NCBI RefSeq assembly: GCF_014837235.1
Contig: NZ_JACYFT010000001.1
Coordinates: forward strand, 124,001 to 188,000
Length of the DNA: 64,000 nt
Source: Limnohabitans radicicola
Lineage (GTDB): Bacteria > Pseudomonadota > Gammaproteobacteria > Burkholderiales > Burkholderiaceae_C
Reading direction: 5' to 3'
Shown: piece after piece, positions 6,842 to 64,000 of the stretch
Layout: every line of letters begins with the position of its first letter
Numbering within the stretch: position 1 is the first letter of the stretch
Notes under the pieces: generated by a model
The model's database searches: none
Told to the model about the DNA's origin: nothing
Seen by the model: the letters and a program-made list of their open reading frames with translations, nothing else
Program-made: the position numbers and the translations under genes

Positions 6842-7645
6842 TCAAGGCCTTGGATGGCCAGCACTGGCATCGGTTCGTGCCACAGGCACCGTCGACGAAG
6901 CGGCTGATCGTACCTTGCGCCAGGGCCGGCTGGTCAACAAGCGTCCGCCAGGCACACGCTTGGTGGCCACGATCAGGTAAGCGCCTCCCAGAATCGGCCA
7001 CCATCGCTGTCCCAACCGATCCAGCCAGAGCCAGCGTTTGCGCCAACGCTCGGACTGCACTGCCGGCGCCCAGCCTCCGAACTGGACGACCTGCACCTCA
7101 AAACCCAGCAGGCCCAGCCAGTCCCGCAAGCGGTTGCAGCTGAGCAACTGTCCCGCATGGCCTTGCGGATCGGCGGCACGCCGCTGACGGACAAAGTGGC
7201 TTTGGCGCCAGCCCCACAAGCTCCAGGGGTTGATGCCCGTGATGAACAACTGCCCCTCCGGGATCAGGACGCGCTCCACCTCGCGCAGGCAGGCATGGGC
7301 ATCGGCCGATTGCTCCAGTGTGTGCGGCAGGACCACCAGATCCAGCGACTCGGCAGGCCAAGGCCAGGCCCGGCTGTCCATCCACAAGCCTTCAAGACAT
7401 GACTGGGGCGCTTGGCCGGGCGATTCATACTCGGCCCCCGCATTCCAGCGGTGCGGCATGCGGTTGGCCCGAAGACTGTCCAGCGCAGGCCAGCCCAGCT
7501 GCAAGGCGTGGTAGCCAAACACATCGGCCAGCAACACATCGGCATGCGTTTGCTCCCAGTCCAGCAAGGCCATGGCCGTGGCGGAGCCCAAACCTGCCAG
7601 CCAGGCATTTCCAATAGGGGGGGTTTCTATAATCTCGGACGCCAT
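6842..7645 (-). CDS. SAM-dependent methyltransferase, class I (type 11)
   Basis: 267 residues. Core features of a small-molecule or protein methyltransferase are visible: the acidic segment [16 protein letters not shown], then [23 protein letters not shown], typical of the Methyltransf_11 fold. The substrate is unknown. I use the ATG at 7645 because GGAG lies eight bases before it on this strand; an upstream in-frame start at 7678 adds 11 residues. The ATG shares two bases with the opposite-strand gloB ATG. It lies upstream of rnhA in the same direction. Between gloB and rnhA this gene family is common in Burkholderiales, but no role is established that I know of. Confidence 0.82.
7628..7643 (+). 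promoter_or_regulatory. gloB -10 element, nearly leaderless start
   Basis: A perfect TATAAT at 7628-7633 stands ten bases before the gloB ATG. Initiation about seven bases downstream would leave a leader of roughly 0-4 bases. No Shine-Dalgarno sequence lies between. The -35 region is weak. The element lies inside the first codons of the divergent methyltransferase gene. Confidence 0.6.
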
Positions 7646-8417
7646 GCAATTGACTCCACTGCCCGCATTCTCTGACAACTACATCTGGTTGTTGAACGAC
7701 CAGCACCGCTTGCTGGCGGTCGACCCCGGTGAGGGTACAGCCGTGCTGAACTGGATGGACAAGCACCCCGGCGTGCAGCTGGACACCATTCTAGTGACCC
7801 ACCACCACGCAGACCACACCGGTGGACTGGTCGAACTGGTCCAGGCCACCGGTGCCCAGGTGTATGGCCCCGCTCTTGAGAAACTGCCCGTGCCACACAC
7901 CCCGGTGGCGCAGGGGCAATCGCTGTCCTGGGGGCCGCTCACGATCCAGGTCATGGACGTCCCGGGCCACACCCTGGGCCATGTGGCCTACTGGACCCAA
8001 CCTGCAGGCCAAGCCCCGGTGCTGTTCTGTGGTGACACCCTGTTTTCGGCAGGTTGCGGTCGCTTGTTTGAAGGCAGCCCGGCGCAAATGCTGGCCTCTT
8101 TGGACCAGTTGTCCGCCTTGCCCGCAGACACCCGGGTCTGCTGTGCCCACGAATACACGCTCTCGAACCTGAAGTTCGCCCTGGTGGTGGAGCCTGACAA
8201 TGCCGAACTGCAGACTTATGCAGGTCAATGCCAGCAACGCCGCAGCCAATCGCTGCCCACCTTGCCCGTGGCCTTGTCCACAGAGCGGGCCATCAACCCG
8301 TTTTTGCGCAGCCGACAAGCCTCGGTTCGCCAGAGCATCCAACAACACTGGCCAGAGGCTTCGGACGATGTGTCCGCGTTCGCTGCCCTGCGACAATGGA
8401 AAAACGAATTCCAATGA
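7644..8417 (+). CDS. gloB: Hydroxyacylglutathione hydrolase (glyoxalase II)
   Basis: 257 residues, normal length. It hydrolyses S-D-lactoylglutathione to lactate and glutathione, the second step of methylglyoxal detoxification. The binuclear metal motif THHHADH is at residues 52-58; further ligands are in PGHTLGHVAY and FCGDTLF, and the C-terminal substrate-binding region is intact. The ATG at 7644 is the only start that gives the conserved [16 protein letters not shown]-terminus. The gene ends in ATGA, overlapping the mltD start, so mltD is translationally coupled to it. Confidence 0.95.
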   Translation: MQLTPLPAFSDNYIWLLNDQHRLLAVDPGEGTAVLNWMDKHPGVQLDTILVTHHHADHTGGLVELVQATGAQVYGPALEKLPVPHTPVAQGQSLSWGPLTIQVMDVPGHTLGHVAYWTQPAGQAPVLFCGDTLFSAGCGRLFEGSPAQMLASLDQLSALPADTRVCCAHEYTLSNLKFALVVEPDNAELQTYAGQCQQRRSQSLPTLPVALSTERAINPFLRSRQASVRQSIQQHWPEASDDVSAFAALRQWKNEFQ

Positions 8418-9940
8418 CCAATTCACACTGCGGGCGGACCATGCCCCGCTGGCCAGGCTTGTGTCTGGTGATGGCGTTGGGCTTTTGGCTCTCCGGCTGC
8501 GCCAGCACCACGAACTCACCGACGCCGCCTGCACAAGCGACATCCGCGGCCCCAAGTGCCAAAACCAGCCCTTCTGAAGCCGCCAGCGATACCCCCAATG
8601 GGGAACTGGCGCAAGCGGGCACCCTCAAGCCCAAAGCCAATCTGGGCCTGTTGCCCCCGACAGACATCTGGGAACGCATCCGCCGAGGTTTTGCCATGCC
8701 TGACCTCGAAGGTCCGCTGGTGCGCGACCGCGAGCAGTGGTATGCAGCCAGGCCCGACTACATCCTGCGCATGACCGAGCGCTCACGCCGCTACCTGTTC
8801 CACATCGTCGAGGAACTGGAACGCCGCGACATGCCGACCGAGCTGGCGCTGCTGCCCTTCATCGAGTCGGCGTTCAATCCAGAGGCGGTGTCCTCAGCGA
8901 AAGCCGCAGGCATGTGGCAATTCATGCCCGCCACCGGCAAGTACTTTGACCTCAAACAAAACCTGTTTCGCGATGACCGCCGTGATGTGCGCGAATCCAC
9001 GCGTGCTGCGCTGGATTACCTGCAAAAACTCTATGGCATGTTCGGTGACTGGCACTTGGCGCTGGCCGCCTACAACTGGGGCGAAGGCAGCGTGGGCCGT
9101 GCCCTGGCCCGCAACAAAGCGCTGGGCAAACCGCTGACCTACAGCGAGCTCAACATGCCCAACGAGACGCGTTACTACGTGCCCAAGCTGCAAGCGGTCA
9201 AAAACATCATTGCGCTGCCCGAGTCCTACAAGGTGGACTTGCCACTGATCCGCAACCACCCTTACTTCAAGAGCGTGCCAATTGAACGAGACATCGATGT
9301 GGCTTTGGCAGCCCGACTGGCCGAGATCAGCCTCGACGACTTCAAGGCCTTGAACCCGTCGATGAGCCGCCCCGTGATTCTCGCTTCGGGCACACCGCAA
9401 ATCCTGCTGCCCTGGGACAATGCCACGGTATTCGAGCGCAACTTGCAAAGCCACAGCGGGCAACGACTGGCCACCTGGACCGCCTGGGTAGCGCCACGCA
9501 CCATGAAACCCGAAGACGCGGCGCAAGAAGTGGGCATGCCCGTCGAGCAATTGCGCTCGGCCAACAGCATTCCGCCGCGGATGATGGTCAAGGCCGGCTC
9601 GACCTTGCTGGTGCACCGCAAAGGCCCCCTGGACACCGATGTCACCGAGCACATGGCCGACACAGCGCAATTGGCTTTGGCACCGGAAGTCGTACTCAAA
9701 CGTATCCTGGTCACCGCCCGTAAAGGCGACACCCTGGCAAGCCTGGCCGCAAGGCATGGTGTGACGGCCGCCAACATGGCCAGCTGGAACAAGCTGCACA
9801 TCGTGACCAGCCTCAAAGGCGGTCAGAGTCTGATCGTGTATGTCCCCAGCGAAGCGCCACGGCGTGCCCCCAAAGCGGTGGCCTCAGCCCCTTCGGCCCG
9901 CGCTCACAAGGCCCCTGCAGCCAGGAAAAAGAAACACTGA
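8414..9940 (+). CDS. mltD: Membrane-bound lytic murein transglycosylase D
   Basis: 508 residues. A lipoprotein signal peptide ends in the lipobox LSGC near residue 30, so the mature protein is lipid-anchored and acts on peptidoglycan in the periplasm. The SLT catalytic domain follows: LPFIESAFNPEAVSSAKAAG with the catalytic Glu, then GMWQFMPATGKYF and AAYNWGEGSVGRAL. A C-terminal LysM motif (ARKGDTLASLAARHGV) binds glycan. The tail is Ala/Lys-rich. I chose the ATG overlapping the gloB stop; a start nine codons later would also keep the signal peptide. Pairing with gloB is probably only positional. Confidence 0.92.
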   Translation: MTNSHCGRTMPRWPGLCLVMALGFWLSGCASTTNSPTPPAQATSAAPSAKTSPSEAASDTPNGELAQAGTLKPKANLGLLPPTDIWERIRRGFAMPDLEGPLVRDREQWYAARPDYILRMTERSRRYLFHIVEELERRDMPTELALLPFIESAFNPEAVSSAKAAGMWQFMPATGKYFDLKQNLFRDDRRDVRESTRAALDYLQKLYGMFGDWHLALAAYNWGEGSVGRALARNKALGKPLTYSELNMPNETRYYVPKLQAVKNIIALPESYKVDLPLIRNHPYFKSVPIERDIDVALAARLAEISLDDFKALNPSMSRPVILASGTPQILLPWDNATVFERNLQSHSGQRLATWTAWVAPRTMKPEDAAQEVGMPVEQLRSANSIPPRMMVKAGSTLLVHRKGPLDTDVTEHMADTAQLALAPEVVLKRILVTARKGDTLASLAARHGVTAANMASWNKLHIVTSLKGGQSLIVYVPSEAPRRAPKAVASAPSARAHKAPAARKKKH

Positions 9941-9968
9941 ATGCCCCCCGCCCATGCCGGGGGCGGGT

Positions 9969-11009: not shown

Positions 11010-11144
11010 CTCTCGCGCTCCATCCTCGGTTCTATCTGGGTTGGACCAAGCTTAGGCCAAGCGCCTGATGCGCGCATCGGGACTCATCCCGAGCGGGTTT
11101 TCACGTAATGGATTGTGAGTAGCCTGCCGCAGACTCCACCGCCA

Positions 11145-12099: not shown

Positions 12100-14040
12100 T
12101 CAGAGGGGCTGGATGCTGCCCGGCACGATCCGGGCACCAAAGTCACGCACCATGGCTTGCACCAGCGGATCGCTTTGAATGAGCTCCTCCGCCGCCACCA
12201 TTTTGGCTGCAGCCGCCACCGCCAAGCGCTTGGCCGGGCTGTCCACCACCGGCCCCAGCTCGACCGCCAGGCGCACTGCATGGCCTGCGGCCTGCAAAGC
12301 CGCCTGCAAACGTTCGCGGGTGCTGGGCATGTTGAGCGATTCGCGCTCGATGCGCAGCTGCCATTGGTCAGCGCTGCGGCTGAACAATTGAGACTGCAGT
12401 GCGAGTTCTCGCACCAGCGCAGTGATGACGTCAGCGGCCATCAGATCCCGCACCACCTCGGCCCAGAAGTCACCTTCGGGGGTGGGCTGCAAAGGCACTT
12501 CGGGGCGCTTGAGCGCGTCCACCCGGGCCGATGGTGCCGGAGCCTCGCGCACAGGCAAGGGGCGAATGGCCGGCGCAGCCACAGGTGCTGCGCTCACCGC
12601 CACCTCGTCCAGTTCCTCCCAGGGCGGCAGGTCCATCGGTGGCTCGTCCAGGGCGGCCAGCATCTCGTCCACCGAGGGTTCGGGATCGGAGGGCGACGCA
12701 GCGGGCTGGGGCTGAGCGGGTCGTTCGGTCCCAACTTGAGGCACCGGAGCAGATACCGGCTCAGGCGGAGTCACGGGCACTGCGGCCACAGGCTCAGCAC
12801 GCGAGGGAGATTCAACACGTGCAACGGCAGCAGGCACCACTGGCGCTGGCGCCACTGTTGGTGCTTTGACTGGAGGGACGGGACGGGCGGACTCAGCCCG
12901 CTGCGTCAGCGATGGGCTTTTTTTTTCAGCCGACCCGCTGGCGGGTTTGAAAGCCAGCAGGCGCAGCAGCACCATGGTGAGCGCCGCGTATTCGTCGGGT
13001 GCCAGACCCAGCTCAGTGCGACCGTGCAGGCACAGGCTGTATAGCAACTGGGTTTCTTCGGCCGACATGCGCTCGGCCAGATCGACCAGCACCGGTGCAT
13101 CCGGGTCATCGGCATCTTGCGTCAAACCAGGCACCGCCTGCATGACGGCCATGCGCTGCAGCAAGGTGCTCATGTCTTCCAGGGTGGCAGCAGCCGACAC
13201 ACCATGCTGGCGCAAGGCATCGACCAGGGACACCACCGACGCGCCATCGGCATCGGCCAAGGCGCGGATCAGGTTGAGCACATGGCTGCGGTCCACGCTG
13301 CCCAGCATTTGGCGAACGCCCGCCTCCTGCAACTGACCGCTGCCAAAGGCGATCGCCTGGTCGGTCAGGCTCAGCGCGTCGCGCATCGAGCCGCGTGCGG
13401 CACGGGCCAGCAAGCGCAAAGCGGCGGGCTCCGCCGCCAGGCTCTCGGCCGCCAGCACGCGGGTCAGGTGTTCAAACACCGTCTCCGGGGCCATCGGACG
13501 CAGGTTGAACTGCAGGCAGCGCGAGAGCACCGTGACCGGAACTTTTTGCGGGTCGGTCGTGGCCAGCACGAACTTGAGGTATTCGGGGGGTTCTTCGAGT
13601 GTTTTCAACATCGCGTTGAACGCGGTGTTGGTGAGCATGTGCACCTCGTCGATCATGAAGACCTTGAAGCGCCCCTGAACAGGTTTGTAGACCGCCTGCT
13701 CCAGCAGGCTCTGGACTTCGTCCACCCCCCGGTTGGAGGCGGCGTCGAGCTCGGTGTAATCGACAAAACGGCCGGCATCGATGTCTCGGCAGGCCTGGCA
13801 CACGCCGCAGGGCTCGGCCGTGATGCCGCCTTGCCCATCTGCGCCCTGGCAGTTGAGCGACTTGGCCAAGATGCGCGAGACGGTGGTCTTGCCCACCCCG
13901 CGGGTGCCGGTGAACAGGTAGGCGTGGTGCAGGCGCTGCTGGGTCAGCGCATTCGACAGGGCCTGAACCACATGCTCCTGCCCCACCATTTCGGTGAAAG
14001 AGCGCGGGCGGTACTTGCGGGCCAGGACAAGGTAAGACAT
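12100..14040 (-). CDS. dnaX: DNA polymerase III subunit tau (and probably gamma)
   Basis: 646 residues, close to the E. coli tau length. It is the clamp-loader ATPase subunit; tau also holds two polymerase cores and the DnaB helicase. Walker A is GTRGVGKTT (residues 45-53), the zinc cysteines are C64, C78, C81 and C84, and [11 protein letters not shown] is Walker B. Domains I-III end near residue 370, followed by an Ala/Pro/Val-rich linker (about 375-500) and the C-terminal polymerase-binding part. Codons 372-374 contain a run of nine A with a hairpin just after, a likely frameshift site giving a short gamma form (separate entry). The start has no ribosome site but a TAGAAT box six bases upstream. 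Confidence 0.96.
12893..12927 (-). other. Candidate dnaX frameshift or slippage signal
   Basis: On the minus strand, codons 372-374 (GAA AAA AAA) plus the next base hold nine consecutive A (12926-12918). A hairpin follows: CGCTG (12911-12907), loop ACG, CAGCG (12903-12899), extended by an outer GCC/GGC pairing. Both alternative frames close at once: the -1 frame reads KPIADAAG then TGA at 12895-12893, the other frame reads three codons then stop. The -1 product would be about 382 residues, ending at the boundary of clamp-loader domain III. In E. coli a shorter A-rich slippery site plus hairpin makes gamma; poly-A slippage is known for Thermus dnaX. Use here is inferred. Confidence 0.65.
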
Positions 14041-14052
14041 GGGAGGATTCTA
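14041..14052 (-). promoter_or_regulatory. dnaX -10 element, leaderless start
   Basis: Minus-strand TAGAAT at 14052-14047 followed by six bases (CCTCCC) and the dnaX ATG. The transcript would begin at or within a base of the A of ATG. The six bases are the opposite of a Shine-Dalgarno sequence. The -35 region is weak. Confidence 0.55.
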
Positions 14053-18426: not shown

Positions 18427-18442
18427 TGTTATCTTTGCCAAC
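18427..18442 (+). promoter_or_regulatory. Extended -10 element directly before a GTG start
   Basis: TG-T-TATCTT (TG at 18427-18428, TATCTT at 18430-18435) is seven bases upstream of the GTG at 18443, with no Shine-Dalgarno sequence. It supports a leaderless message and that GTG as the start codon. Confidence 0.5.
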
Positions 18443-28890: not shown

Positions 28891-28961
28891 GGTGTACTCC
28901 TCGGGTATTCAGGGGCCGATTTCAATGCATGGGACTGACAGGAGGCTGAAGCCGGATGGGC

Positions 28962-28973
28962 GACAATCACCCC
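28962..28973 (+). promoter_or_regulatory. dnaG -10 element, leaderless start
   Basis: GACAAT at 28962-28967, then six bases and the ATG at 28974. A competing arrangement exists: GGAGG at 28941-28945 stands ten bases before an in-frame ATG at 28956, which would add six residues. The 28974 start matches the usual DnaG N-terminus better. Confidence 0.45.
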
Positions 28974-30938
28974 ATGGCGATCCCCCAGTCATTCTTGCAG
29001 GAACTGCTCAACCGTGTCGACGTGGTCGAGGTGGTGGGCAAGTACGTCCAGCTCAAGAAGGGCGGCGCCAACTTCATGGGGCTGTGCCCCTTCCACGGTG
29101 AAAAATCCCCCAGCTTCAGCGTCAGCCCCACCAAACAGTTCTTCCACTGCTTTGGCTGCGGCAAGAACGGCAATGCCATCGGCTTCCTGATGGAGCACAC
29201 GGGCATGACCTTCATCGAGGCCGTCAAGGACCTGGCCCAGCAAGTGGGCATGCAGGTGCCCGAAGAACAGCAGTCGCCCGAAGACCGTGCCCGTGCTGCT
29301 GCCGCCAAAGCCAAGCAGGACAGCCTGACCGATGTGCTCGAAAAAGCCGGGGCGTCTTACCGCGAACACCTCAAGACCAGCCAGCGGGCCATCGCCTACC
29401 TCAAGGGCCGGGGCCTGTCCGGCCAGATCGCCAAGCGCTTTGGCCTGGGCTATGCGCCCGAGGGCTGGCGCAGTCTGGCCAGTGTTTTTCCGGAATACGA
29501 CAACCCGCTGCTGGCCGAATCGGGCCTGGTGATCGTCAACGAAGAAGACGACAAACGCTACGACCGCTTTCGCGACCGGATCATGTTCCCGATCCGCAAC
29601 ATCAAGGGCGAATGCATCGGCTTTGGCGGCCGGGTGATCGGCGACGGCACGCCCAAGTACCTGAACTCCCCCGAAACCCCGGTCTTCCACAAAGGCCGCG
29701 AGCTCTACGGCCTGTACGAAGCCCGCGAAGCGCTGCACAGCGCGGGCTACGTGCTGGTGACCGAAGGCTACATGGACGTGGTGGCCCTGGCCCAGCTGGG
29801 CTTTGCCAACGCCGTGGCCACCCTGGGCACCGCCTGCACGCCCGACCATGTGCAAAAGCTGTTCCGCTTCACCGACTCGGTGGTGTTCAGCTTTGACGGT
29901 GACGGCGCAGGTCGCCGCGCCGCCCGCAAGGCGCTCGACGGTGCCCTGCCCTACGCCACCGATGTGCGCAGCATCAAGTTTTTGTTTTTGCCAGCCGAGC
30001 ACGACCCCGACAGCTACGTGCGCGAGTTCGGCCAGGACGCCTTTGCCGAGCAGATCAAACAGGCCATGCCCCTGTCGCGCTTTCTGATCGAAGCGGCCAG
30101 CGCCGACTGCGATTTGCACACCGCCGAGGGGCGAGCCCGCCTGTCCAGCCAGGCCCGCCCGCTGTGGCAGCTGTTGCCCGAGGGCGCGCTCAAGCAGCAG
30201 CTGCTGGCCGAACTGGCCCAACTCATCCAGCTCGAAACCGCTGGACTGGAGCGCCTGTGGGGCCAGCAAGCGGCCAGCGACCAGCGCTTTGCGCCTGCTG
30301 CCTCGCCCGCAGCAGCCGCGCCAACCCGGCAAGCTGCGCCGCCCCCGGAATACGCGGGCTATGCCAGCTCCAGCGCGCCAGCCAAAAGCTGGCCACGCAA
30401 ATTCGACAAAGGCTCGGGCAACAGCCGCTGGCGCAGAACCGCGCCACCGCCCAACACCGGGCCACGCACCTTGCCCGCCAGCCGCGCCGACCACGCCGCA
30501 CGCCTGCTGCTGGGCAACATGGCCTTGTGGGAAACATTGGCCAGTGAAGACCAGGCCATGCTGTGCGAGCTGCCCATGCCCCACGGCATGTTGTTCGCCT
30601 GGATGGAGGCACAGTTCCACGAACACGGCCCCCTGGGTTGGTCAGCGCTCAAGGCCGAAATGCAAGGCCAACTCTTTGCCGAGCAGGCCGAGCGCTGGAT
30701 GGCCCAGCACGCCTTGGGTGCGGGCGACGACCCCACACCACCCGACATCCATGAAGCACGCCAGGAGTTGCGCGGCTTGCTGAATTTGTTGCTGATTGAC
30801 CGCTTGAAACAGCTCGAAACCGAGGCGCTGACACAAGCGCAAAGCGGCAAGGACCCGGAGGCCCTCAAACGGTACGAAAGCCTGTACCGCAGACGGCTGG
30901 AGTTGAGCGCCCAAAGCCGGTCAGTCGCCAGCGACTGA
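28974..30938 (+). CDS. dnaG: DNA primase
   Basis: 654 residues. It makes RNA primers for replication. The CHC2 zinc-binding domain has C38, H41, C59 and C62 (CPFHGEKSPSF, HCFGCG). The Toprim core has VTEGYMDVVALAQ and FSFDGDGAGRRAA. A Pro/Ala-rich linker (about 435-500) leads to the C-terminal DnaB-interacting helices. Two starts are possible, 28956 (with a ribosome site) and 28974 (leaderless context, family N-terminus MAIPQSFLQELL); I use the second. It is convergent with cysE, 14 bases apart. No rpoD or rpsU follows, unlike in E. coli. Confidence 0.95.
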   Translation: MAIPQSFLQELLNRVDVVEVVGKYVQLKKGGANFMGLCPFHGEKSPSFSVSPTKQFFHCFGCGKNGNAIGFLMEHTGMTFIEAVKDLAQQVGMQVPEEQQSPEDRARAAAAKAKQDSLTDVLEKAGASYREHLKTSQRAIAYLKGRGLSGQIAKRFGLGYAPEGWRSLASVFPEYDNPLLAESGLVIVNEEDDKRYDRFRDRIMFPIRNIKGECIGFGGRVIGDGTPKYLNSPETPVFHKGRELYGLYEAREALHSAGYVLVTEGYMDVVALAQLGFANAVATLGTACTPDHVQKLFRFTDSVVFSFDGDGAGRRAARKALDGALPYATDVRSIKFLFLPAEHDPDSYVREFGQDAFAEQIKQAMPLSRFLIEAASADCDLHTAEGRARLSSQARPLWQLLPEGALKQQLLAELAQLIQLETAGLERLWGQQAASDQRFAPAASPAAAAPTRQAAPPPEYAGYASSSAPAKSWPRKFDKGSGNSRWRRTAPPPNTGPRTLPASRADHAARLLLGNMALWETLASEDQAMLCELPMPHGMLFAWMEAQFHEHGPLGWSALKAEMQGQLFAEQAERWMAQHALGAGDDPTPPDIHEARQELRGLLNLLLIDRLKQLETEALTQAQSGKDPEALKRYESLYRRRLELSAQSRSVASD

Positions 30939-31720: not shown

Positions 31721-31734
31721 AGGCTCCAAGTCTA
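31721..31734 (-). promoter_or_regulatory. Possible cysE -10 element near the start codon
   Basis: Minus-strand TAGACT (31734-31729) eight bases before the cysE ATG, in the 22-base gap after trmJ. Because GGAG is also present, the message could be read either from a near-leaderless start or from the trmJ transcript. Confidence 0.35.
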
Positions 31735-32483: not shown

Positions 32484-32495
32484 GCCCCGATTGTC
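32484..32495 (-). promoter_or_regulatory. trmJ -10 element, leaderless start
   Basis: Minus-strand GACAAT (32495-32490), six bases, ATG at 32483. No Shine-Dalgarno sequence. The spacing equals that of the dnaX, glnS and dnaG cases. Confidence 0.5.
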
Positions 32496-43772: not shown

Positions 43773-43784
43773 TAAAATCACGGC
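43773..43784 (+). promoter_or_regulatory. glnS -10 element, leaderless start
   Basis: TAAAAT at 43773-43778, six bases, ATG at 43785, no ribosome-binding sequence. Confidence 0.55.
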
Positions 43785-45623
43785 ATGAATTCCCCCACCG
43801 CCAAAGCCACCGATTGCAACGCCGCAGCCGACACCAAAGTCAGCAACTTCCTGCGCCAAATCATCGAAAACGACCTGGACAAAGGCACCTACGCCAGCCG
43901 CCGCTGGGCAGGCAGCCCCGGCGACGCCGCCCACCACGCCAAGGGCGAGCCCGATCCGGCCAAGATCCGCACCCGCTTTCCGCCCGAGCCCAACGGCTAC
44001 CTGCACGTGGGTCACGCCAAAAGCATCTGCATCAACTTCGGGCTGGCCAAGGAATACGGCGGCGTGTGCCACCTGCGCTTTGACGACACCAACCCCGAAA
44101 AAGAAGACACCGAATACGTCAACAGCATCATCGACGCCGTGAAGTGGCTCGGTTTTGACTGGGCGCAATTGGGCCAAGCCGCTGGCAGCGCCGCGCCCTA
44201 CCAAGCCAGCGACTATTTCGACTTCATGTACCGCGCAGCCGAGGCCTTGATCGAAGCGGGCCACGCCTATGTGGACGAACAAAGCGCCGAAGACATGCGC
44301 GCCAACCGAGGCGACTTTGGCAAGCCCGGCGTGGACAGCCCATTCCGTACGCGCACCGTCGCAGAAAACCTGGCGCGATTCCGAGAAATGCGCGACGGCC
44401 AACTGGCCGACGGCGCTGCCGTGCTGCGCGCCAAGATCGACATGGCTTCGCCCAACATCAACCTGCGCGATCCGGCCATCTACCGCATCCGCCGCGCCAC
44501 CCACCACCACACGGGCGACAAATGGTGCATCTACCCGATGTACACCTTTGCCCACCCCATCGAAGACGCGCTGGAGCAAATCACCCACAGCATCTGCACG
44601 CTGGAGTTTGAAGACCAGCGCCCGTTTTACGACTGGCTGATGGAGCGCCTGTGCGAATGCGGCCTGCTGGCCGCGCCCAGCCCCAAACAATACGAATTTG
44701 CCCGCCTGAATCTCACTTACGTCATCACCAGCAAACGCAAGCTGGCGCAATTGGTCAATGAAGGCAAAGTCAGCGGCTGGGACGACCCGCGCATGCCGAC
44801 CATCGCGGGCCTGCGACGCCGCGGCTACACGCCAGAGAGCCTGCGCCTGTTTGCCGACCGCATTGGCGTGACCAAAAGCGACAGCTGGATCGACTACAGC
44901 ACGCTCGAAGGCTGCCTGCGCGAAGACCTGGAAAACAAAGCCCACCGCGGCATGGCCGTGCTCGACCCGGTCAAGCTCGTGCTGACCAACTGGGCCGAGG
45001 CTTTTGGCAGCGACGGCTACACCGAGGCCTGCACCCAACCCGCCCTGCCCCACAGCGCGATTGCCGAGGGCCAAACGCCACCCGCCGACCGCACGTTCCA
45101 GATCGGCAAAGAAGTGTGGATCGAGCGCGAAGACTTTGAAGAAGTGCCGCCCAAGGGCTACAAACGCCTGTTCCCCAGCAACGTGGTGCGCCTGAAGGGC
45201 GGCTACGTGATCGAATGCACCGGCTGCGCACGCGACGCGGCGGGCAACGTCACCGAAGTGCACGCCAAAGTCATCCCCGGCACCAAGAGCGGCACCCCCG
45301 GCGCCGACAGCGTCAAAGCCAAAGCCGCCATCACTTGGGTGGGCGTGGCCGACGGCGTGCAAGCTGAAGTGCGCCTGTACGACCGCCTGTTTGCCGAAGC
45401 GCATCCTGATGCGGGCGGCAAAGACTTCTTGCAGTCGCTCAACCCGGACAGCCTGAAAGTGGTCACAGCCTATGTGGAGCCATCACTGGCCGGGGCGCAG
45501 CCGGACCAGAAGTTTCAGTTTGAGCGCTTTGGATACTTTGTGGCGGATCGCCTGGATCATGTGGCGGGCGCCAAGCCGGTGTTTAACCGAGTGACTGGGC
45601 TGAAAGATTCTTGGGGGAAGTAA
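43785..45623 (+). CDS. glnS: Glutaminyl-tRNA synthetase
   Basis: 612 residues. Class I synthetase with HIGH variant HVGH in PPEPNGYLHVGHAKSI, the KMSKS-type loop in VITSKRKLAQLV, and the anticodon-binding beta barrels at the C-terminus. An insertion at about residues 400-440 (AEGQTPPADRTFQIG region) makes it somewhat longer than the 554-residue E. coli enzyme. Divergent from the MFS gene. It marks the left border of the accessory patch that follows. Confidence 0.95.
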   Translation: MNSPTAKATDCNAAADTKVSNFLRQIIENDLDKGTYASRRWAGSPGDAAHHAKGEPDPAKIRTRFPPEPNGYLHVGHAKSICINFGLAKEYGGVCHLRFDDTNPEKEDTEYVNSIIDAVKWLGFDWAQLGQAAGSAAPYQASDYFDFMYRAAEALIEAGHAYVDEQSAEDMRANRGDFGKPGVDSPFRTRTVAENLARFREMRDGQLADGAAVLRAKIDMASPNINLRDPAIYRIRRATHHHTGDKWCIYPMYTFAHPIEDALEQITHSICTLEFEDQRPFYDWLMERLCECGLLAAPSPKQYEFARLNLTYVITSKRKLAQLVNEGKVSGWDDPRMPTIAGLRRRGYTPESLRLFADRIGVTKSDSWIDYSTLEGCLREDLENKAHRGMAVLDPVKLVLTNWAEAFGSDGYTEACTQPALPHSAIAEGQTPPADRTFQIGKEVWIEREDFEEVPPKGYKRLFPSNVVRLKGGYVIECTGCARDAAGNVTEVHAKVIPGTKSGTPGADSVKAKAAITWVGVADGVQAEVRLYDRLFAEAHPDAGGKDFLQSLNPDSLKVVTAYVEPSLAGAQPDQKFQFERFGYFVADRLDHVAGAKPVFNRVTGLKDSWGK

Positions 45624-45643
45624 GGTTGACTTTGGAAGTAAAA

Positions 45644-45675
45644 ATTAATCCGAATTTTCAAAATATTGGATTAAT
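45644..45675. promoter_or_regulatory. AT-rich inverted repeat before the orphan gene
   Basis: ATTAATCC (45644-45651) and GGATTAAT (45668-45675) with a 16-base AT-rich centre. It lies about 30 bases before the gene at 45708 and overlaps its likely promoter; a regulator site is plausible. It lacks a T tract, so it is not a standard terminator. Confidence 0.45.
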
Positions 45676-45707
45676 AAGTTAACATTCATCCATTCTAAGG
45701 AGTGAGC

Positions 45708-46547
45708 ATGGATGATCCAAAGTTGCAATCCAAAATTTATACAACCATTGAAAAAATCAACTCAAAATCATTTGACACTTCAACACTGACAGATTTTTAC
45801 TCTGCCGTAAGATGGTCTGATGCTAATCAAAATTGGCCACTAACACTTGAAATTTCCAATTTTGTGGCGCACCATAAAAGAGATAGAGGTTACGTACTTG
45901 AAAAAATAGCATCAATGGAAGTTATTTCAAACTTCATTGAGGAAGAAAATTTCAATCAATCGAAATCTGTTAATGCACTAAAATTTCCTCAACGTGTCTT
46001 TGAGGCAATTCTTGATATACATGGGACAGAGATCAAAAAATATTACATCTTAGATAAGAAAAATAAATTTTACAACAGGAATAATAAACCAGATCCCTCC
46101 GGCAAAGTCCTCAAATATCTCAAGGGTGTTTTTTACACTATTGAATTTCAAAAACCACTAATTGATTCAAATGAGATCTATAGTGATTTTTTCGGATCAC
46201 TTAATTTTCATGCGGGTATTTTTAAAATAAATCGACTAAAGCCAGTCGACTTAGAAACAAAGAACGAGATCATTCTTTGTATATTATCTGTGCTATCTTC
46301 AATATCAATAGAAACAAAATCGGGTGCAATAATAAATCCGAAATTTAAAGCCGCCGACGGAGTAATTCAGCTACGTTACGGCTATCCATTTAAAAACCCA
46401 GCTGTCAGCTTTACCCTTAAAGGAGCAACATTAGACTTTCTTTTTTGTTCCGGTAAATTTGATGCTGAAGATCTTAAATTTTCTGAGCATTCTTCCGACT
46501 TGATTCGATCTGAATCGGGTGATTTATTTTTTGTTCAATGCAATTAG
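45708..46547 (+). CDS. AT-rich orphan gene, unknown function
   Basis: 279 residues. I do not recognise the family. Codon use is strongly AT-biased (many AAA, AAT, ATT), unlike every neighbour, which points to recent transfer. AAGGAG at 45697-45702 stands five bases before the ATG. No signal peptide or membrane segment. The sequence is rich in Lys, Asn, Phe and Ile; the middle holds IKKYYILDKKNKFYNRNN and the C-terminus GVIQLRYGYPFKNPAVSF. It stands next to a broken restriction gene and toxin-antitoxin pairs, so a defence or mobile-element role is possible but unproven. Confidence 0.75.
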   Translation: MDDPKLQSKIYTTIEKINSKSFDTSTLTDFYSAVRWSDANQNWPLTLEISNFVAHHKRDRGYVLEKIASMEVISNFIEEENFNQSKSVNALKFPQRVFEAILDIHGTEIKKYYILDKKNKFYNRNNKPDPSGKVLKYLKGVFYTIEFQKPLIDSNEIYSDFFGSLNFHAGIFKINRLKPVDLETKNEIILCILSVLSSISIETKSGAIINPKFKAADGVIQLRYGYPFKNPAVSFTLKGATLDFLFCSGKFDAEDLKFSEHSSDLIRSESGDLFFVQCN

Positions 46548-46888
46548 TTCATTCACACAACCCAAAGTGGGGCAACCTTTCGAATCAAACGCAAGGAAAC
46601 TAGGTGCATATCCAAGAGATGGCGGTGTAAAGAAACCGATCCATCATATGTAAATTTATTTTTTAAGCGAAGACAAACGTCCATAGGTGCACGAACAGTT
46701 CTCACGCAACGCCTACAACGGCACGTCCAACACATTTCATGGGCCGCGTGTGCCTTGGTGCTGACTCAAGAGTTGCGGACAAGCTGTCAGGACAGCCTCC
46801 GGCCCCGGGAGCAACGCAGCTTCGGCAACATACCCAGATTTTCTTCAACAAGCTCGCGCAGAAAGATGGCCAAAACTGTGTAAACCTA
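46548..46888. other. Gene-free stretch next to the hsdR remnant
   Basis: About 340 bases without a convincing gene. Composition changes from AT-rich (to about 46680) to GC-rich within it, so the border of the transferred segment probably lies here. Short open frames on both strands (such as the plus frame from 46739) have no recognisable domain. I see no terminal repeats or transposase. Confidence 0.5.
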
Positions 46889-47620
46889 TCAAATCGCCCC
46901 ACCAACCCCCTTAAATTTCTCCACAAACGCAGCCACCTTCTGAAACACGGTTTGCTTTTTGGTCAGGTACAGCGGGTTCAGGGGGCTCATTTTGGGGAGC
47001 ATGGCGTTGAGTTCGGTGCCGTTGTCGCTGGCGTATTCGCGCTTGAGTGAGTGGACGATGTAACGCTTGGCGGCGTCGGCGTTCAGGTTTTCTGAGCTGA
47101 TCAGCTCTTGCGCTTCGCGCAGCTGTTCGGCTTGCGCAAAGGTGAAGAAGGCTTCGATCACGCTGGCTTTGTCGTCGAACTGGCTCAGGTCCGTCTGGTT
47201 GATGAAGTCCACCAACAGGCTTTCTTTGGCACGGTTGCCCAAGCTGGCGCGAATGGCGCGGCGCACCTCTTCAACCAAGGCGGCTTTGGTCTTGACCTTT
47301 TTGTTGTTGTCGAAGATCAGCTCAAGGATGTAGTCCAGGTTGATCTCTTGCGACTTGAGAAAATCCACCTCAAACACCACATCGTCCCAATCGACGCTGG
47401 ACTGCTCGGGTTGCTGGCCTTCGCGTTGGCGGCGCAGCCAATCGCGGATGTCGTTGTAGGCCGATCGGTAATCTTGCACGGCCCGCTTGCTGGGGCTGGT
47501 CTGGATGAGCCGCAAGATTTGCTCGGTGTCGGCCAGATCAGTCAGGTATTTTTTGCCGTCGGCGGCGAGCAATTTCAGTTGGTTAGTGGCACACACCAAC
47601 TGACTGCTCTTGAACTTCAC
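46889..47620 (-). pseudogene. Type I restriction enzyme HsdR, C-terminal remnant
   Basis: 243 codons. The stretches [57 protein letters not shown] and [15 protein letters not shown] are characteristic of the helical C-terminal region of HsdR subunits, which are about 1000 residues long. The nuclease and helicase parts are missing. The frame opens at a GTG (47620) just after an in-frame stop seven codons upstream, so there is no longer N-terminus. hsdM and hsdS are also absent. I read it as a deletion relic; a functional small protein is less likely. Confidence 0.75.
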
Positions 47621-47655
47621 CCGATCCAGGCAAACATATCAAGGGCGGGCTCAGG

Positions 47656-48291
47656 TCATTCTTGGCCGCTGTGTGTGTCGTCGTAGATCTCGTGCAACGA
47701 CTTGCCGTTGAAGGTCCAGTGTGGTGAGGGCTGAATCGCGTAGTCTTTGGGCAAACCCAAAACGACGCGAGTGGCTGCCGACAACGAGCATTCTTGCCCT
47801 TCAAACATCACCTTCTTCTCGCTCGCCACTGTGGCTTGGCGGCTGCCGTCTTTGAAGACCAGCACCGAGCCGCTGGGGATGCCCAGCTCATGAAAATTCA
47901 TGCGTGGGCGACGCGCTTCTTTCATCACCTCTGCGGATTGTTTGTCTGCCGCGTCGGTGTCCGCTTCAATGGTTTTCTCCACCGCGTCGGTGATGTCCTC
48001 GACCTGTAAAAGCTTCAAGACCGCGATCACCCGGTCCGCCTCGATTCGGAAAAACTCCCGGTTCGGGTTGATCCGATCTTTGCCAAACGCATAGTGCAAA
48101 GCGCGCTCCACTTCGCTTGCGTCTTTGACTTGACACGCAAACGCGCAGTCGTAAGGCACAGGCACACCAGTGCTGTAAAGCTGCTTCATCCGCGCTTCCA
48201 CCTCCATTTGGGTGGTCATGCCAATTTTGATCAGCCCTGGCATGGCGGGGTTGGTCAACACGTAAACGATTTGGTTGGAGTCGATGGACAT
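47656..48291 (-). CDS. GIY-YIG/T5orf172-type nuclease domain protein
   Basis: 211 residues. The N-terminal 90 match the T5orf172 branch of the GIY-YIG fold: IVYVLTNPAMPGLIKIGMTT, a conserved Arg in EARMKQL, and the acidic EFFRIE end. The last 65 (VLVFKDGSRQATV to HWTFNGKSLHEIYDD) resemble small RAMA/DUF4357-like modules seen in restriction-linked proteins. Such genes often lie between hsdS and hsdR, which agrees with the hsdR remnant 35 bases downstream. ATG 48291 is chosen; a TTG five codons earlier is possible. Whether it is still active is unknown. Confidence 0.75.
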   Translation of the reverse strand: MSIDSNQIVYVLTNPAMPGLIKIGMTTQMEVEARMKQLYSTGVPVPYDCAFACQVKDASEVERALHYAFGKDRINPNREFFRIEADRVIAVLKLLQVEDITDAVEKTIEADTDAADKQSAEVMKEARRPRMNFHELGIPSGSVLVFKDGSRQATVASEKKVMFEGQECSLSAATRVVLGLPKDYAIQPSPHWTFNGKSLHEIYDDTHSGQE

Positions 48292-51544: not shown

Positions 51545-52213
51545 TTACTTTTTCTGCACCGGGTTGGCCAGCAGCAGGCTGGCCGAATAGGTCCGCATGA
51601 ACTCTTTGGCCTTGTCGATCGGGGCCGTCAGCCAAGCGCTGTACGCGCCTTCGTTCAAGATGGCGGGCATGCGCTTTTCGTTGCCGTTTTGCTGGTAACG
51701 GCGCATCAGCTCGTGGCTGTTGGCGTTCACCGTCAGCATGGCAAAGCTGATGATTTCTTCGCCGTCTTTGTGCCAGCGCTCCCAGAGTCCCGCCACACCC
51801 ATGGGCTTGCCGTTCACACGGGCAATGCGGGTGGGCACGGCCTTGCCGCTGCGCCAGTCGTCTTCAATGAAGGCCTGCATCGGGATGATGCAGCGCTGCC
51901 CTTGCAGCCAGGTGTCGCGGAAGTTGGTGGAGGTGGTCACGGTCTCCGACCGGGCGTTGACCAGCTTGGTGGAGCGCAGCTTGGCGTCTGACGCCGACTT
52001 GACCCAAGGCGGCACCAGCCCGTATTGGCCCTGGGCCAGTTCCAGCACTGCGGGTGTGTCGGCCACGGGCTCGGTCAGCTCGACCTGCGCCTTGCGGATG
52101 AACAGGCCAGGCTGGCGGGGCCAGACGGCTTTGCCCAGCAGTTGGGCGGGGGCAGCGACGCCAAAGGCTTCGTACAGATCGGCCGTTTTGAGGCATTCGT
52201 ATTGGGAACTCAT
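51545..52213 (-). CDS. SRAP (YedK/HMCES-like) family protein with altered active site
   Basis: 222 residues. SRAP proteins cross-link to abasic sites in single-stranded DNA through Cys2. Here the start is MSSQYECLK, so position 2 is Ser. The conserved NARSET with its Asn and the Glu in MQAFIEDDW are present, but the His normally found close before the RMP motif is replaced in the context [11 protein letters not shown]. If the reading is right the protein cannot form the usual bond. The next Cys (position 7) would need a different register. The ATG has a TAGCAT box seven bases upstream and no ribosome site. Confidence 0.8.
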
Positions 52214-52252
52214 GCGGAGGATGCTAACCGACGACCTGATACGCTCACGCCC
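52214..52252. promoter_or_regulatory. Overlapping divergent leaderless promoters
   Basis: Only 39 bases separate two divergent ATGs. Minus strand: TAGCAT (52226-52221) then seven bases to the SRAP ATG. Plus strand: extended -10 TG-A-TACGCT (52237-52245) then seven bases to the RluE-like ATG. Each -35 region would lie on the other's -10. Confidence 0.5.
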
Positions 52253-52786
52253 ATGCTGATCCGTTTCAACAAGCCCTATGGCGTGCTCAGCCAGTTCACC
52301 CCCGAGGGGCGCTGGCAGGGACTCAAAGACCACATCGACCTGCCCGGGGTGTATGTGGCCGGGCGGCTGGACGCCGACAGCGAGGGCTTGCTGCTACTCA
52401 CCGACGACGGCAAAGAACAAGCCCGCATTGCCGATCCGCGCTTCAAGATGGAAAAGACCTACCTGGTGCAGGTCGAAGGCGTGGTGGACGAGCAGGCGCT
52501 GACCGCCCTGGCCCGGGGCGTGACGCTGAACGACGGCCCCACCCTGCCCGCCCGTGCCCGGGCTGTAGAGCCGCCCGTTGACCTGTGGCCACGCACCCCG
52601 CCGATTCGGGAGCGCAAAAACATTCCGACCTCTTGGCTGGAACTGACGATCCGCGAGGGGCGCAACCGCCAGGTGCGCCGCATGACGGCGGCGGTGGGTC
52701 TGCCCACGCTGCGCCTGATCCGCATCGCCATTGGGCCGTATCACCTGCGTGACCTGCCCACGGGCACATGGCAGCAGGTGGATTAG
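52253..52786 (+). CDS. Pseudouridine synthase, RsuA/RluE family
   Basis: 177 residues without an S4 domain, as in Rlu[18 protein letters not shown], the catalytic-Asp motif [14 protein letters not shown], and [20 protein letters not shown] are present. RluE makes pseudouridine 2457 in 23S rRNA; the target here is inferred. The open frame extends far upstream but overlaps the SRAP gene; the ATG at 52253 is used. Confidence 0.9.
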
Positions 52787-59738: not shown

Positions 59739-59774
59739 GCACCAACATGGTGCAATTATGCTTTATTTTGGTGC
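59739..59774. promoter_or_regulatory. NtrC binding sites upstream of glnA
   Basis: GCACCAACATGGTGC (59739-59753) is a perfect GCACC-N5-GGTGC dyad. A weaker second copy, GCTTTATTTTGGTGC (59760-59774), keeps the right half. Centres are 21 bases apart, two helical turns, so NtrC dimers would sit on one face. Distance to the start is about 130-155 bases, normal for enhancers. Confidence 0.75.
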
Positions 59775-59776
59775 AA

Positions 59777-60640: not shown

Positions 60641-61526
60641 GGGCCGATGCTAAACGCTCGGCCGCGTGGGGCGAAGGCATCCCCGTCGTGGCCGTGACAT
60701 CGACCACGTCGCCTTTGCCGAAATCGCTGACGACCTCTTGGCGCAACGCATGCAAGGCGGCCAGCGCAAAGTGCGCAAACCACAGCGACGAGAACGCGAA
60801 CACCAGCGTGTAAATCCAGATCGCCACCGGGATCAGGACCACAAAGGCCGCCGCAAACAAGGCCCCCGAAGCCCAGACCAGGCTGGGCGCTGCCCCCATC
60901 AGACCCGTCAACACCCCGATGCCCAAGAGGCTCATGCGATGCCGCGCCATCAGGCTCTGGCGCTCTGGCGGACTGGCGAACTCGGCCAGCACATCGAACG
61001 CCATGACCCGGTAAGTGAGCCAGCCCCAGATGACCGCAGGCAAGACCAGCGCCAGCGGCGGCACCAGCCACAAGGGCAAGGTCAGCAGCAAAGCCCCCAG
61101 CGCCAACAACAATGAAATCAGGGTCCAGCCCACGCTTTGCAGCGCCGTGCCGCCCTGCTTGCGCTGCAGGCCTGCAAAGCGCCGCTCGGCCACCAGCCGG
61201 GTGAGCGCAGGCGTCATGAAAAACGACACCGCCAGCAAGGAAGCCACCACCACCGCAGGCGTGACCGCAAAGATCACCAGCAGCGGCGCCACCACCGTCT
61301 TGAGGTTGGGTGCCCCCACCTGCTCCAGCCACTGCCAGACCGAGCCCAGCAGGCTCGACGCCTCCAGCCACACCCGCACCTGGCCCACGGCCCCGTCCCA
61401 AAACCAATACCCCAAGGTCCCGGCCAGCACCACCGTGAGGACGAGCGGCAACAAGGACAAAAAGATGACGCGGGGGTACAGGCAATAAAACGCTGCACGC
61501 CAAAAAGATTCGATCAGGAGTCGCAT
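60609..61526 (-). CDS. EI24 domain membrane protein
   Basis: 305 residues with five or six membrane segments. MRLLIESFWRAAFYCLYPRV opens the first segment; ERRFAGLQRKQGGTALQ and GWLTYRVMAFDVLAEFAS match the EI24/CysZ-like family. CysZ imports sulfate; for this branch transport is only a guess. The C-terminus overlaps the CinA-like start. The start has an extended -10 box just upstream. Confidence 0.85.
   Translation of the reverse strand: MRLLIESFWRAAFYCLYPRVIFLSLLPLVLTVVLAGTLGYWFWDGAVGQVRVWLEASSLLGSVWQWLEQVGAPNLKTVVAPLLVIFAVTPAVVVASLLAVSFFMTPALTRLVAERRFAGLQRKQGGTALQSVGWTLISLLLALGALLLTLPLWLVPPLALVLPAVIWGWLTYRVMAFDVLAEFASPPERQSLMARHRMSLLGIGVLTGLMGAAPSLVWASGALFAAAFVVLIPVAIWIYTLVFAFSSLWFAHFALAALHALRQEVVSDFGKGDVVDVTATTGMPSPHAAERLASAHELPEHRSES
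60641..60652 (-). promoter_or_regulatory. -10 element of the CinA-like gene, leaderless start
   Basis: Minus-strand TAGCAT (60652-60647), six bases, ATG. It lies within the last codons of the EI24 gene. Confidence 0.45.
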
Positions 61527-61542
61527 AGGGGCAAGCTTAGCA
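61527..61542 (-). promoter_or_regulatory. Extended -10 element of the EI24 gene, leaderless start
   Basis: Minus-strand TG-C-TAAGCT (61542-61534), seven bases, ATG at 61526. No ribosome-binding sequence. Confidence 0.5.
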
Positions 61543-61603
61543 GTCCGTCAAAACTTTCAAGCCAGTGCAGAACGCACGTCAAGCGATATTGCTCGCTTGA
61601 GCA

Positions 61604-62011: not shown

Positions 62012-62020
62012 GTCAAACCC

Positions 62021-62263
62021 TCAAAAGCCCAAACGCGGCACGTCAGCGGGCTGCGTAGCAGCTGCGTCTTCGCGCAGCGGGAAGTCGGCAAACCGCCCGG
62101 CCAGCTTCAGGCAATCCTTGGGCCACTCATGAGAGGCATAGGTGCGGATGATGTCCGCCACCCAACGGCTTTTGGACACACCGTTGGCCTTGGCCGCTTC
62201 GTCCACCAAAGCCTGTGTCGCGTCATCGAGGTAAAGCGTGATTTGTGACATGGACTCGCCCAT
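62021..62263 (-). CDS. vapB: VapB-type antitoxin, ribbon-helix-helix
   Basis: 80 residues. ITLYLDDATQALVDEAAKAN gives the beta strand and helix of an RHH DNA-binding domain; the C-terminal 30 residues would mask the toxin. The ATG at 62263 has a TATACT box seven bases before it; a second ATG at 62251 is in frame (MSQITLYLDD). Confidence 0.88.
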   Translation of the reverse strand: MGESMSQITLYLDDATQALVDEAAKANGVSKSRWVADIIRTYASHEWPKDCLKLAGRFADFPLREDAAATQPADVPRLGF

Positions 62264-62288
62264 TAAAACAAGTATACGTGCAAGTATA
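62264..62288 (-). promoter_or_regulatory. vapBC promoter with direct repeats
   Basis: TATACT (minus 62276-62271) is a good -10, with TTCAAA as -35 (about 62299-62294). The octamer CAAGTATA (plus strand) occurs at 62269-62276 and 62281-62288, overlapping the -10; likely VapBC operator half-sites. Confidence 0.6.
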
Positions 62289-62306
62289 TGTGTTTTGAAA
62301 AATGAT

Positions 62307-63269: not shown

Positions 63270-63273
63270 GGCG

Positions 63274-64000
63274 TCATTGTGGCGAAGCAGGCAAACCCGA
63301 CAACTTCAAAGGATGTTGGGTGATCCAGCGCTGGTAGTGCGGGTGCTCGCGCAGCGTGGCAAAGCACAGACCTTTGGCCTTGAGGCCCACGATCAACGGC
63401 TCCAGCACCGCCGGGGCCCAGGGGTCTTGCCGCGACCAGATGCCCAGATGCGCCATCAGGATGTCGCCGCTGCGGATGGTCTTGAGCGCTTTCTGGAGCA
63501 AGCGGTCATTGGGGAACTTGTCGCTCGACAACTCGTCGCCGAGAAAGCCCGCCTCGGCCCAGCCCACATGCTCAAACCCGCAGGCCTTGGCCGCACGCAG
63601 CAGCGCGGGCGAGGTCTTGCCGCCCGGCGCGCGGAACAAAGACAAAGGCGCTTGCCCCGTCAGCGTCTGCAGCCGCGCTGCCGCCTGGCGCAGGTTGTCG
63701 CAATAGTCCTGCGCCGACCAATTGAGGTCCTGCCCGGCCTGGCTGCCCGAGCTGGGCCGGATGCGAAAACGCTGCTCTGGCAGGTCGGCGCGCCAGTAGG
63801 CGTGGTCATAGGTGTGGGAAGCAAACTCGTGGCCGTGGCGGGCCTGCTCGCGCCACCAGGTGGACCAGTGCTGGCCCAGCGTGCCATCACCTTCACGGGT
63901 TTTTTCCTGCGCGGCAAAAAAAGTCACACGCACCTGCTGGCGCTGGAGCACCTCGGCAATCAGGGGGGCCACGCCCATGTGGCCCGTGTCGAAGGTGAGG
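63274..64000 (-). CDS. Polysaccharide deacetylase family protein, N-terminus outside window
   Basis: At least 242 residues; the frame runs out at the right edge, where it reads LTFDTGHMG, the first NodB motif with its metal-binding Asp. FASHTYDHAYW is the His motif (HxxxH-like), and FRAPGGKTS the third. It would remove acetyl groups from an envelope glycan. The first ATG inside the window (63978) is not the true start. Confidence 0.88.
   Translation of the reverse strand, partial: LTFDTGHMGVAPLIAEVLQRQQVRVTFFAAQEKTREGDGTLGQHWSTWWREQARHGHEFASHTYDHAYWRADLPEQRFRIRPSSGSQAGQDLNWSAQDYCDNLRQAAARLQTLTGQAPLSLFRAPGGKTSPALLRAAKACGFEHVGWAEAGFLGDELSSDKFPNDRLLQKALKTIRSGDILMAHLGIWSRQDPWAPAVLEPLIVGLKAKGLCFATLREHPHYQRWITQHPLKLSGLPASPQ

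What the first reader, a model, noticed from the sequence alone, without database searches (positions are those of the whole stretch)
7628..63281. Recurrent leaderless start architecture: -10 hexamer 6-8 bases before the start codon
At many unit-heading genes a -10-like hexamer stands at a near-fixed distance from the start codon with no Shine-Dalgarno sequence: dnaX (TAGAAT, 6), dnaG (GACAAT, 6), trmJ (GACAAT, 6), glnS (TAAAAT, 6), CinA-like (TAGCAT, 6), the GTG at 18443 (TG-T-TATCTT, 7), RluE-like (TG-A-TACGCT, 7), EI24 (TG-C-TAAGCT, 7), SRAP (TAGCAT, 7), vapB (TATACT, 7), cysE (TAGACT, 8), gloB (TATAAT, 10), perhaps the desaturase (CACAAT, 6). Transcription would begin on or next to the start codon. 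In GC-rich DNA such matches at so many starts should be rare. Leaderless genes of this TANNNT type are known from Actinobacteria and Deinococcus, much less from Betaproteobacteria. Genes concerned are mostly DNA/RNA-processing enzymes, suggesting a regulon-wide translation mode.
Basis: partly seen in the sequence, partly recalled or inferred. Interest (0 to 1): 0.78.

Follow-up and report, generated by a model that had tools for sequence, protein, structure and literature searches.

The report
Leaderless genes in a freshwater betaproteobacterium
In this freshwater bacterium a small share of genes, including the DNA-replication gene dnaX, have the promoter's -10 box right against the start codon, so their messages probably begin at the start codon without the usual ribosome-binding leader; this style is already known in related bacteria, but the dnaX case is unusually well conserved.

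Summary
All 13 quoted hexamers are present. In a sample of the same genome without the window, TANNNT lies 6-8 bases before the start at 51 of 1039 genes, against 13.9 in shuffles (0 of 200 reach it) and 9 at offsets 12-14. A Shine-Dalgarno match precedes 1 of 61 such starts, 341 of 1041 others. The genome is Limnohabitans-like. At dnaX the box stands 6-9 bases before the start in the 80 closest named loci and all 49 family genomes read. glnS, EI24, gloB, dnaG and partly cysE are conserved; trmJ, CinA-like and RluE are not.

Best reading: about 3-5% of genes have -10-only promoters giving leaderless or near-leaderless mRNAs. This is known for Betaproteobacteria (PMC3160421, PMC7563307, PMC4603805). 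The "regulon of DNA/RNA enzymes" fails: 3 of 39 genes versus 3 of 38 controls. No 5' ends were mapped; counts in two relatives' genomes were weak. New here: dnaX near-fixed as leaderless, and gene-specific -10 letters kept across a family.

The parts
14047..14052 (-). -10 box TAGAAT of dnaX, 6 nt before ATG at 14040 (gene 12100-14040)
   Evidence: the 80 closest named loci all have TAGAAT/TAAAAT at d6-9; so do 29 of 29 and 20 of 20 family genomes read, TACAAT in a few; no -35 in the 80
43773..43778 (+). -10 box TAAAAT of glnS, 6 nt before ATG at 43785 (gene 43785-45623)
   Evidence: 23 of 29 family orthologs have TANNNT at d6-9, mostly TAAAAT/TAGAAT
28962..28967 (+). -10 box GACAAT of dnaG, 6 nt before ATG at 28974; an ATG at 28956 with AGGAGG in front is a rival start
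   Evidence: most orthologs have a start at or next to the 28974 position; TANNNT at d6-9 in 13 of 29, relaxed hexamer in 22 of 29
31729..31734 (-). -10 box TAGACT of cysE, 8 nt before ATG at 31720; 22 nt behind trmJ, so an internal promoter
   Evidence: TANNNT at d6-9 in 11 of 29 orthologs; in 15 of 29 TANACT lies 26-44 nt upstream
61534..61539 (-). -10 box TAAGCT of the EI24-family gene, 7 nt before ATG at 61526, with TGn in front
   Evidence: 17 of 29 orthologs d6-9, mostly TATGCT/TATCCT; the base two before the hexamer is 89% identical pairwise
7628..7633 (+). -10 box TATAAT of gloB, 10 nt before ATG at 7644: near-leaderless, a leader of about 3-4 nt (inferred)
   Evidence: TATAAT at exactly 10 nt in 18 rows, the window's own included; 18 of 28 other orthologs at d6-11
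52221..52226 (-). -10-like TAGCAT of SRAP, 7 nt before ATG at 52213
   Evidence: present; no ortholog with a start found in the loci at hand
52240..52245 (+). -10-like TACGCT of the RluE-like gene, 7 nt before ATG at 52253; faces the SRAP box within 39 nt
   Evidence: present; only 2 of 11 orthologs
60647..60652 (-). -10-like TAGCAT of the CinA-like (MoCF) gene, 6 nt before ATG at 60640, inside the end of EI24
   Evidence: present; 4 of 29 orthologs
62271..62276 (-). -10-like TATACT, 7 nt before ATG at 62263 (vapB-like); TATACTTG occurs twice
   Evidence: present; an in-frame ATG 12 nt further in is a possible start; not tested in relatives
18430..18435 (+). -10-like TATCTT with TGn, 7 nt before GTG at 18443
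   Evidence: present; start not verified, no Pfam family
32490..32495 (-). GACAAT 6 nt before ATG at 32483 (trmJ)
   Evidence: present; TANNNT at d6-9 in 0 of 25 orthologs
63276..63281 (-). CACAAT 6 nt before ATG at 63269 (fatty acid hydroxylase family); the gene before it ends 4 nt upstream
   Evidence: present; overlaps the end of that gene; weakest of the list

Best explanation
About 3-5% of the genes of this Limnohabitans-like bacterium carry a sigma-70-type -10 box that ends 6-8 bases before the start codon, with almost no Shine-Dalgarno and (where I looked, at dnaX) no -35 box. [quoted passage not shown] Shown: the position-specific excess, the near absence of Shine-Dalgarno, the conservation of hexamer and spacing in relatives for the best cases. 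Inferred: transcription start at the codon, and leaderless translation. The genes look like a mixed housekeeping set, not a regulon.
For: Outside the window 51 of 1039 genes at d6-8, 0 of 200 shuffles reach it; over all genes d5 to d9 count 2, 28, 14, 19, 4. Shine-Dalgarno in 1 of 61 against 341 of 1041. dnaX: 80 of 80, 29 of 29, 20 of 20. glnS 23 of 29, EI24 17 of 29, dnaG 13 of 29. For dnaX, glnS, cysE and EI24 the hexamer stays more alike than most flanking bases. Mapped leaderless mRNAs exist in Cupriavidus and Burkholderia.
Against: No 5' ends were mapped for this organism. Roughly 14-15 of the 51 sites are expected by chance. My gene starts are signal-blind and imperfect. A hexamer at d6-8 occupies part of the Shine-Dalgarno zone, and control hexamers there also lower Shine-Dalgarno counts, some strongly (T...AT 1 of 37, AA...T 3 of 37, T...TA 0 of 9), some little (AT...A 10 of 40, TT...A 14 of 45). 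trmJ, CinA-like and RluE are not conserved. In a 400 kb same-genus sample (G006) the count was only 20 against 11.1, and in family genome G036 2 against 1.7; neither of the two d6-8 sites with an ortholog in G006 was kept.
Confidence: 0.86

Rival explanations
1. The -10 boxes are real but give leaders of a few bases, or coexist with upstream promoters that supply leadered mRNAs, so translation is not truly leaderless.
For: gloB lies at d10 in many relatives; cysE keeps TANACT but at 26-44 nt in 15 of 29 orthologs; I did not search for further promoters upstream.
Against: Shine-Dalgarno is nearly absent at these starts, and spacing clusters at 6-8, which puts the expected start on the codon (the spacing rule is recalled, and PMC3160421 argues the same way).
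Confidence: 0.2
2. Chance or base composition: T- and A-rich bases before starts make TANNNT common.
For: The window was singled out after the fact, and 3 of the 13 listed hexamers depart from TA.
Against: 0 of 200 dinucleotide shuffles reach the count in either set; outside the window offsets 3-5, 9-11 and 12-14 hold 6, 7 and 9 against 51; conservation at dnaX.
Confidence: 0.02
3. A regulon of DNA/RNA-processing genes with a dedicated translation mode.
For: dnaX, dnaG, glnS, SRAP, RluE in the window; class K and L enrichment of leaderless mRNAs reported in Cupriavidus and higher shares in information storage and processing over many genomes (PMC3160421).
Against: Outside the window 3 of 39 such genes (DnaE, MutL, an integrase) against 3 of 38 controls; the rest include pdxH-, argH-, hemA-, aroB-, thyA- and murJ-like genes. 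The sets are small and about a third of the 39 are expected chance sites, so a mild bias is not excluded.
Confidence: 0.04

Closest known systems
TA-led (leaderless) genes of bacteria, Zheng et al. 2011, PMC3160421 (passages seen)
   Same: TANNNT about 12 bp before the start, counted from the first T, little information in the middle in high-GC genomes, no Shine-Dalgarno; betaproteobacteria 9 of 71 genomes, mean 6.8%, range 2.8-10.6%.
   Different: Acidovorax, Burkholderia, Bordetella and Ralstonia do not occur in its main text, and which nine genomes are meant I did not see; the share here (3-5%) is in the lower part of that range.
Leaderless mRNAs of Cupriavidus metallidurans CH34 (PMC7563307) and Burkholderia cenocepacia J2315 (PMC4603805); passages seen
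   Same: Same order (recalled); mapped starts; 4.67% of primary starts in Cupriavidus; TA-rich motif directly upstream in Burkholderia.
   Different: dnaX, glnS, dnaG and cysE are not named in the main text of either; enrichment of classes K and L (Cupriavidus) and of regulators (Burkholderia) was reported there, not seen here.
Leaderless dnaX mRNA of Caulobacter crescentus (Winzeler and Shapiro 1997, not held and not read; cited in PMC4117421, passages seen)
   Same: The same gene is leaderless.
   Different: In other classes of the phylum 1 of 20 genomes read has the box at d6-9 before dnaX, so the two cases look independent; no Caulobacter genome was identified among them (they are unnamed).
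[quoted passage not shown]
   Same: -10 motif a few bases before the ORF, weak dependence on other promoter sequence.
   Different: Different phylum, and a larger share of genes there (39.4% on average in PMC3160421).

Membership tests
TA-led leaderless genes (Zheng 2011) | TANNNT with first T about 12 bp before the start | tested here: met
   61 of 1102 genes at d6-8 (first T at -12 to -14) against 16.5 expected
TA-led leaderless genes (Zheng 2011) | no Shine-Dalgarno at these genes | tested here: met
   1 of 61 against 341 of 1041; part of the effect is occupancy of the site
TA-led leaderless genes (Zheng 2011) | transcription starts at or within a few bases of the start codon | not testable with these tools
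   needs 5' end mapping
TA-led leaderless genes (Zheng 2011) | promoter conserved at orthologous starts (added by me, gene by gene) | tested here: inconclusive
   met for dnaX 80 of 80 and 49 of 49, glnS 23 of 29, EI24 17 of 29; partly for dnaG 13 of 29 and cysE 11 of 29; not met for trmJ 0 of 25, CinA-like 4 of 29, RluE 2 of 11
Co-regulated DNA/RNA regulon | functional enrichment outside the window | tested here: not met
   3 of 39 against 3 of 38
Extended -10 / -35 promoters | TTGACA-like box 15-19 nt upstream, or TGn | tested here: not met
   dnaX only, 80 loci: best -35 match no better than shuffled, TGn in 0 of 80; EI24 keeps the G of TGn

The most novel reading that the evidence does not exclude
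The replication clamp-loader gene dnaX is locked into leaderless expression in one whole family and recurrently across its order, with a frozen TAGAATC and little else conserved. That would mean its output is set by -10 letters and by the ribosome's leaderless route, a constraint also reached independently in Caulobacter. More generally, each such gene keeps its own -10 letters because they are its only dial.
Probability: 0.3. Interest if true: 0.62.

Novelty: new member of a known kind. Interest (0 to 1): 0.42.

Why it matters
It helps fix true start codons for core genes (dnaG here has a tempting upstream ATG with a perfect Shine-Dalgarno). It offers natural -10-only promoters whose letters and spacing are conserved gene by gene. 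And it makes the question of why particular genes stay leaderless testable in cultivated Comamonadaceae. For the field at large it extends a known phenomenon rather than opening a new one.

Tried and rejected
Regulon idea: not supported by the Pfam comparison. Comparison of the genome's sites with a same-genus sample: only 36 orthologs and two d6-8 sites (0 of 2 kept), too few to judge. Whole-genome pattern counts with a backward control: 294 against 218 in the own genome, mixed in the 29 others; a weak test, not relied on. Counts in 400 kb each of G006 and G036: 20 against 11.1 and 2 against 1.7; starts are poor, above all in G036 (68% GC). Deep ancestry of leaderless dnaX: outside the order 1 of 25 loci has TANNNT at d6-9 (L352, AT-rich) and 1 of 20 in other classes (one of the 20 without a start found); within the order, L328 (GTG start, TATTTT at d7) is unclear and is not in my order count. 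A first script on glnS stopped with an error and was replaced, whose printout was cut; the missing trmJ and RluE rows were printed. Literature: of which 8, 36 and 78 show only part of a longer list; I saw no report of leaderless dnaX in Betaproteobacteria there, and most subscription papers are not held.
Full report
What it is. The window is part of a 3.34 Mb genome. The nearest named relatives by dnaX are Limnohabitans and other Comamonadaceae (the best 80 of 538 confirmed loci; the window's own genome may be left out there). Here d means the number of bases between the end of the hexamer and the start codon.

The observation. Pfam supports the gene names dnaX, dnaG, a glnS-type synthetase, SpoU (trmJ-like), SRAP, a pseudouridine synthase, a MoCF/CinA-like domain and gloB, and shows only a hexapeptide transferase for cysE; EI24 is confirmed. 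The 'desaturase' is a fatty acid hydroxylase, and the vapB-like protein itself gave no match although a PIN protein lies beside it. cysE, the CinA-like gene and the fatty acid hydroxylase do not head a unit.

More than chance. I called genes by coding score and start-codon type alone, without any upstream signal, in the window plus 60 stretches of the same genome, 1.264 Mb. Of 1111 genes called, 1102 were kept; nine at piece ends or with large overlaps were dropped. TANNNT at d6-8 occurs at 61 of 1102; the counts for d5 to d9 are 2, 28, 14, 19, 4. Without the window it is 51 of 1039; two dinucleotide shuffles (of 50 and of 24 bases) give means of 13.9 and 13.7 and at most 24, 0 of 200 reaching 51 in either; offsets 3-5, 9-11 and 12-14 hold 6, 7 and 9. 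A column shuffle of the 574 unit-heading genes outside the window, which keeps the column composition, gives 23.9 on average and at most 39 in 300, against 40. The window alone has 10 of 63, more than the rest of the sample (Fisher P 0.0016).

No Shine-Dalgarno. A four-base Shine-Dalgarno match lies before 1 of 61 of these starts and 341 of 1041 others. Other A/T hexamers at the same place also reduce it, some strongly (T...AT 1 of 37, AA...T 3 of 37, T...TA 0 of 9), some little (AT...A 10 of 40, TT...A 14 of 45), so part of the effect is occupancy.

Conservation. dnaX is the clearest case: all of the 80 closest named loci have TAGAAT or TAAAAT at d6-9, with a Shine-Dalgarno match in one. Most are labelled Comamonadaceae or its genera; some carry broader labels, and one (L075) is labelled Akkermansia, presumably by mistake. 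In a family sample, 57 of 60 genomes had a match; besides the own one I read 49 and all have a TANAAT box at d6-9 (29, 20, two of the 20 with the start one codon further up, read by eye); seven with a match were not read, and some loci recur in the named set. Two more family genomes also have it. In other families of the order, 16 of 36 parsed and 3 of the 4 left over, so 19 of 40 read, out of 57 genomes outside the own family with a match. Outside the order 1 of 25 loci (AT-rich) and 1 of 20. Over the 80 named loci the hexamer is near-invariant (G at position 3 in 97%, C after it in 93%), while -35-like matches are no better than shuffled and TGn is absent; a few bases 3-6 before the box are partly conserved.

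Other genes in the family sample, own genome excluded: glnS 23 of 29, EI24 17 of 29, gloB 18 of 28 at d6-11, dnaG 13 of 29 (22 of 29 with a relaxed hexamer), cysE 11 of 29, CinA-like 4 of 29, RluE 2 of 11, trmJ 0 of 25, SRAP none with a start. The start in each ortholog is the in-frame start codon nearest to the query's, so some may be wrong. In cysE a TANACT box sits 26-44 nt upstream in 15 of 29, 6-10 nt in 11, and none was seen in 3, so the leader appears to lengthen and shorten while the box persists, though some distant boxes may be chance. Each gene keeps its own letters: identity of the three middle positions is 0.86 within genes and 0.46 between genes, among sites chosen as TANNNT; shared ancestry contributes. 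Most bases around the box are less alike for dnaX, glnS, cysE and EI24, less clearly so for gloB and dnaG.

Function. Of 39 unit-heading genes outside the window with the box (40, one crossing a stretch end was dropped), I count 3 as DNA/RNA enzymes (DnaE, MutL, integrase) and 3 as regulators; of 38 random unit-heading controls (at least 300 nt long, a limit not set for the first group), 3 as DNA/RNA enzymes (two helicases, a MiaB-like protein) and 4 as regulators, besides 2 ribosomal proteins (the sorting is mine, and about a third of the 39 are expected chance sites, 13.2 of 40). So a regulon of DNA/RNA enzymes is not supported.

Relatives' genomes. Gene calls on 400 kb each of a same-genus and a same-family genome gave 20 of 351 against 11.1 and 2 of 316 against 1.7.

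How it works. The -10 box alone, placed against the start codon, would make RNA polymerase begin at or beside the A of ATG; the ribosome would then bind the 5'-terminal start codon with initiator tRNA. The position, the missing Shine-Dalgarno and the conservation are shown; the start point and the translation route are inferred from established knowledge of leaderless mRNAs.

Known or new. Leaderless genes of this type are described for betaproteobacteria by computation (PMC3160421) and by mapped starts in Cupriavidus and Burkholderia. Leaderless dnaX is known from Caulobacter. I saw no report of it in Betaproteobacteria. The new content is its near-fixation in one family and the gene-specific -10 letters.

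Noticed in passing
window 52213-52253: SRAP and the RluE-like gene diverge from 39 bases that hold two facing -10-like boxes; if both fire, the promoters overlap.
   Followed up: partly
loci L205-L233 (cysE orthologs): A TANACT box of cysE lies 6-10 nt before the start in 11 of 29 and 26-44 nt in 15 of 29; my pattern finds no Shine-Dalgarno in the latter: a possible natural series of leader gain and loss.
   Followed up: partly
window 28956-28974: dnaG has a long-form ATG preceded by AGGAGG and a short-form ATG preceded by GACAAT; relatives favour the short form, so automatic annotation may be wrong.
   Followed up: partly
window about 44000-48000: G+C falls to 0.53 against about 0.62 around it, with no gene called between 45624 and 46888: a possible inserted region.
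   Followed up: no
window 62263-62300: TATACTTG occurs twice before the vapB-like gene, as a -10 box or as an operator of the antitoxin.
   Followed up: no
L034:10387, L018:8655, L023:11491, L038:7652: hemA-, dnaE-, mutL- and aroB-like genes elsewhere in the genome carry the same -10-at-start layout.
   Followed up: no
L075: A record titled Akkermansia muciniphila holds a dnaX 72% identical to this Limnohabitans-like one; the label looks mistaken.
   Followed up: no
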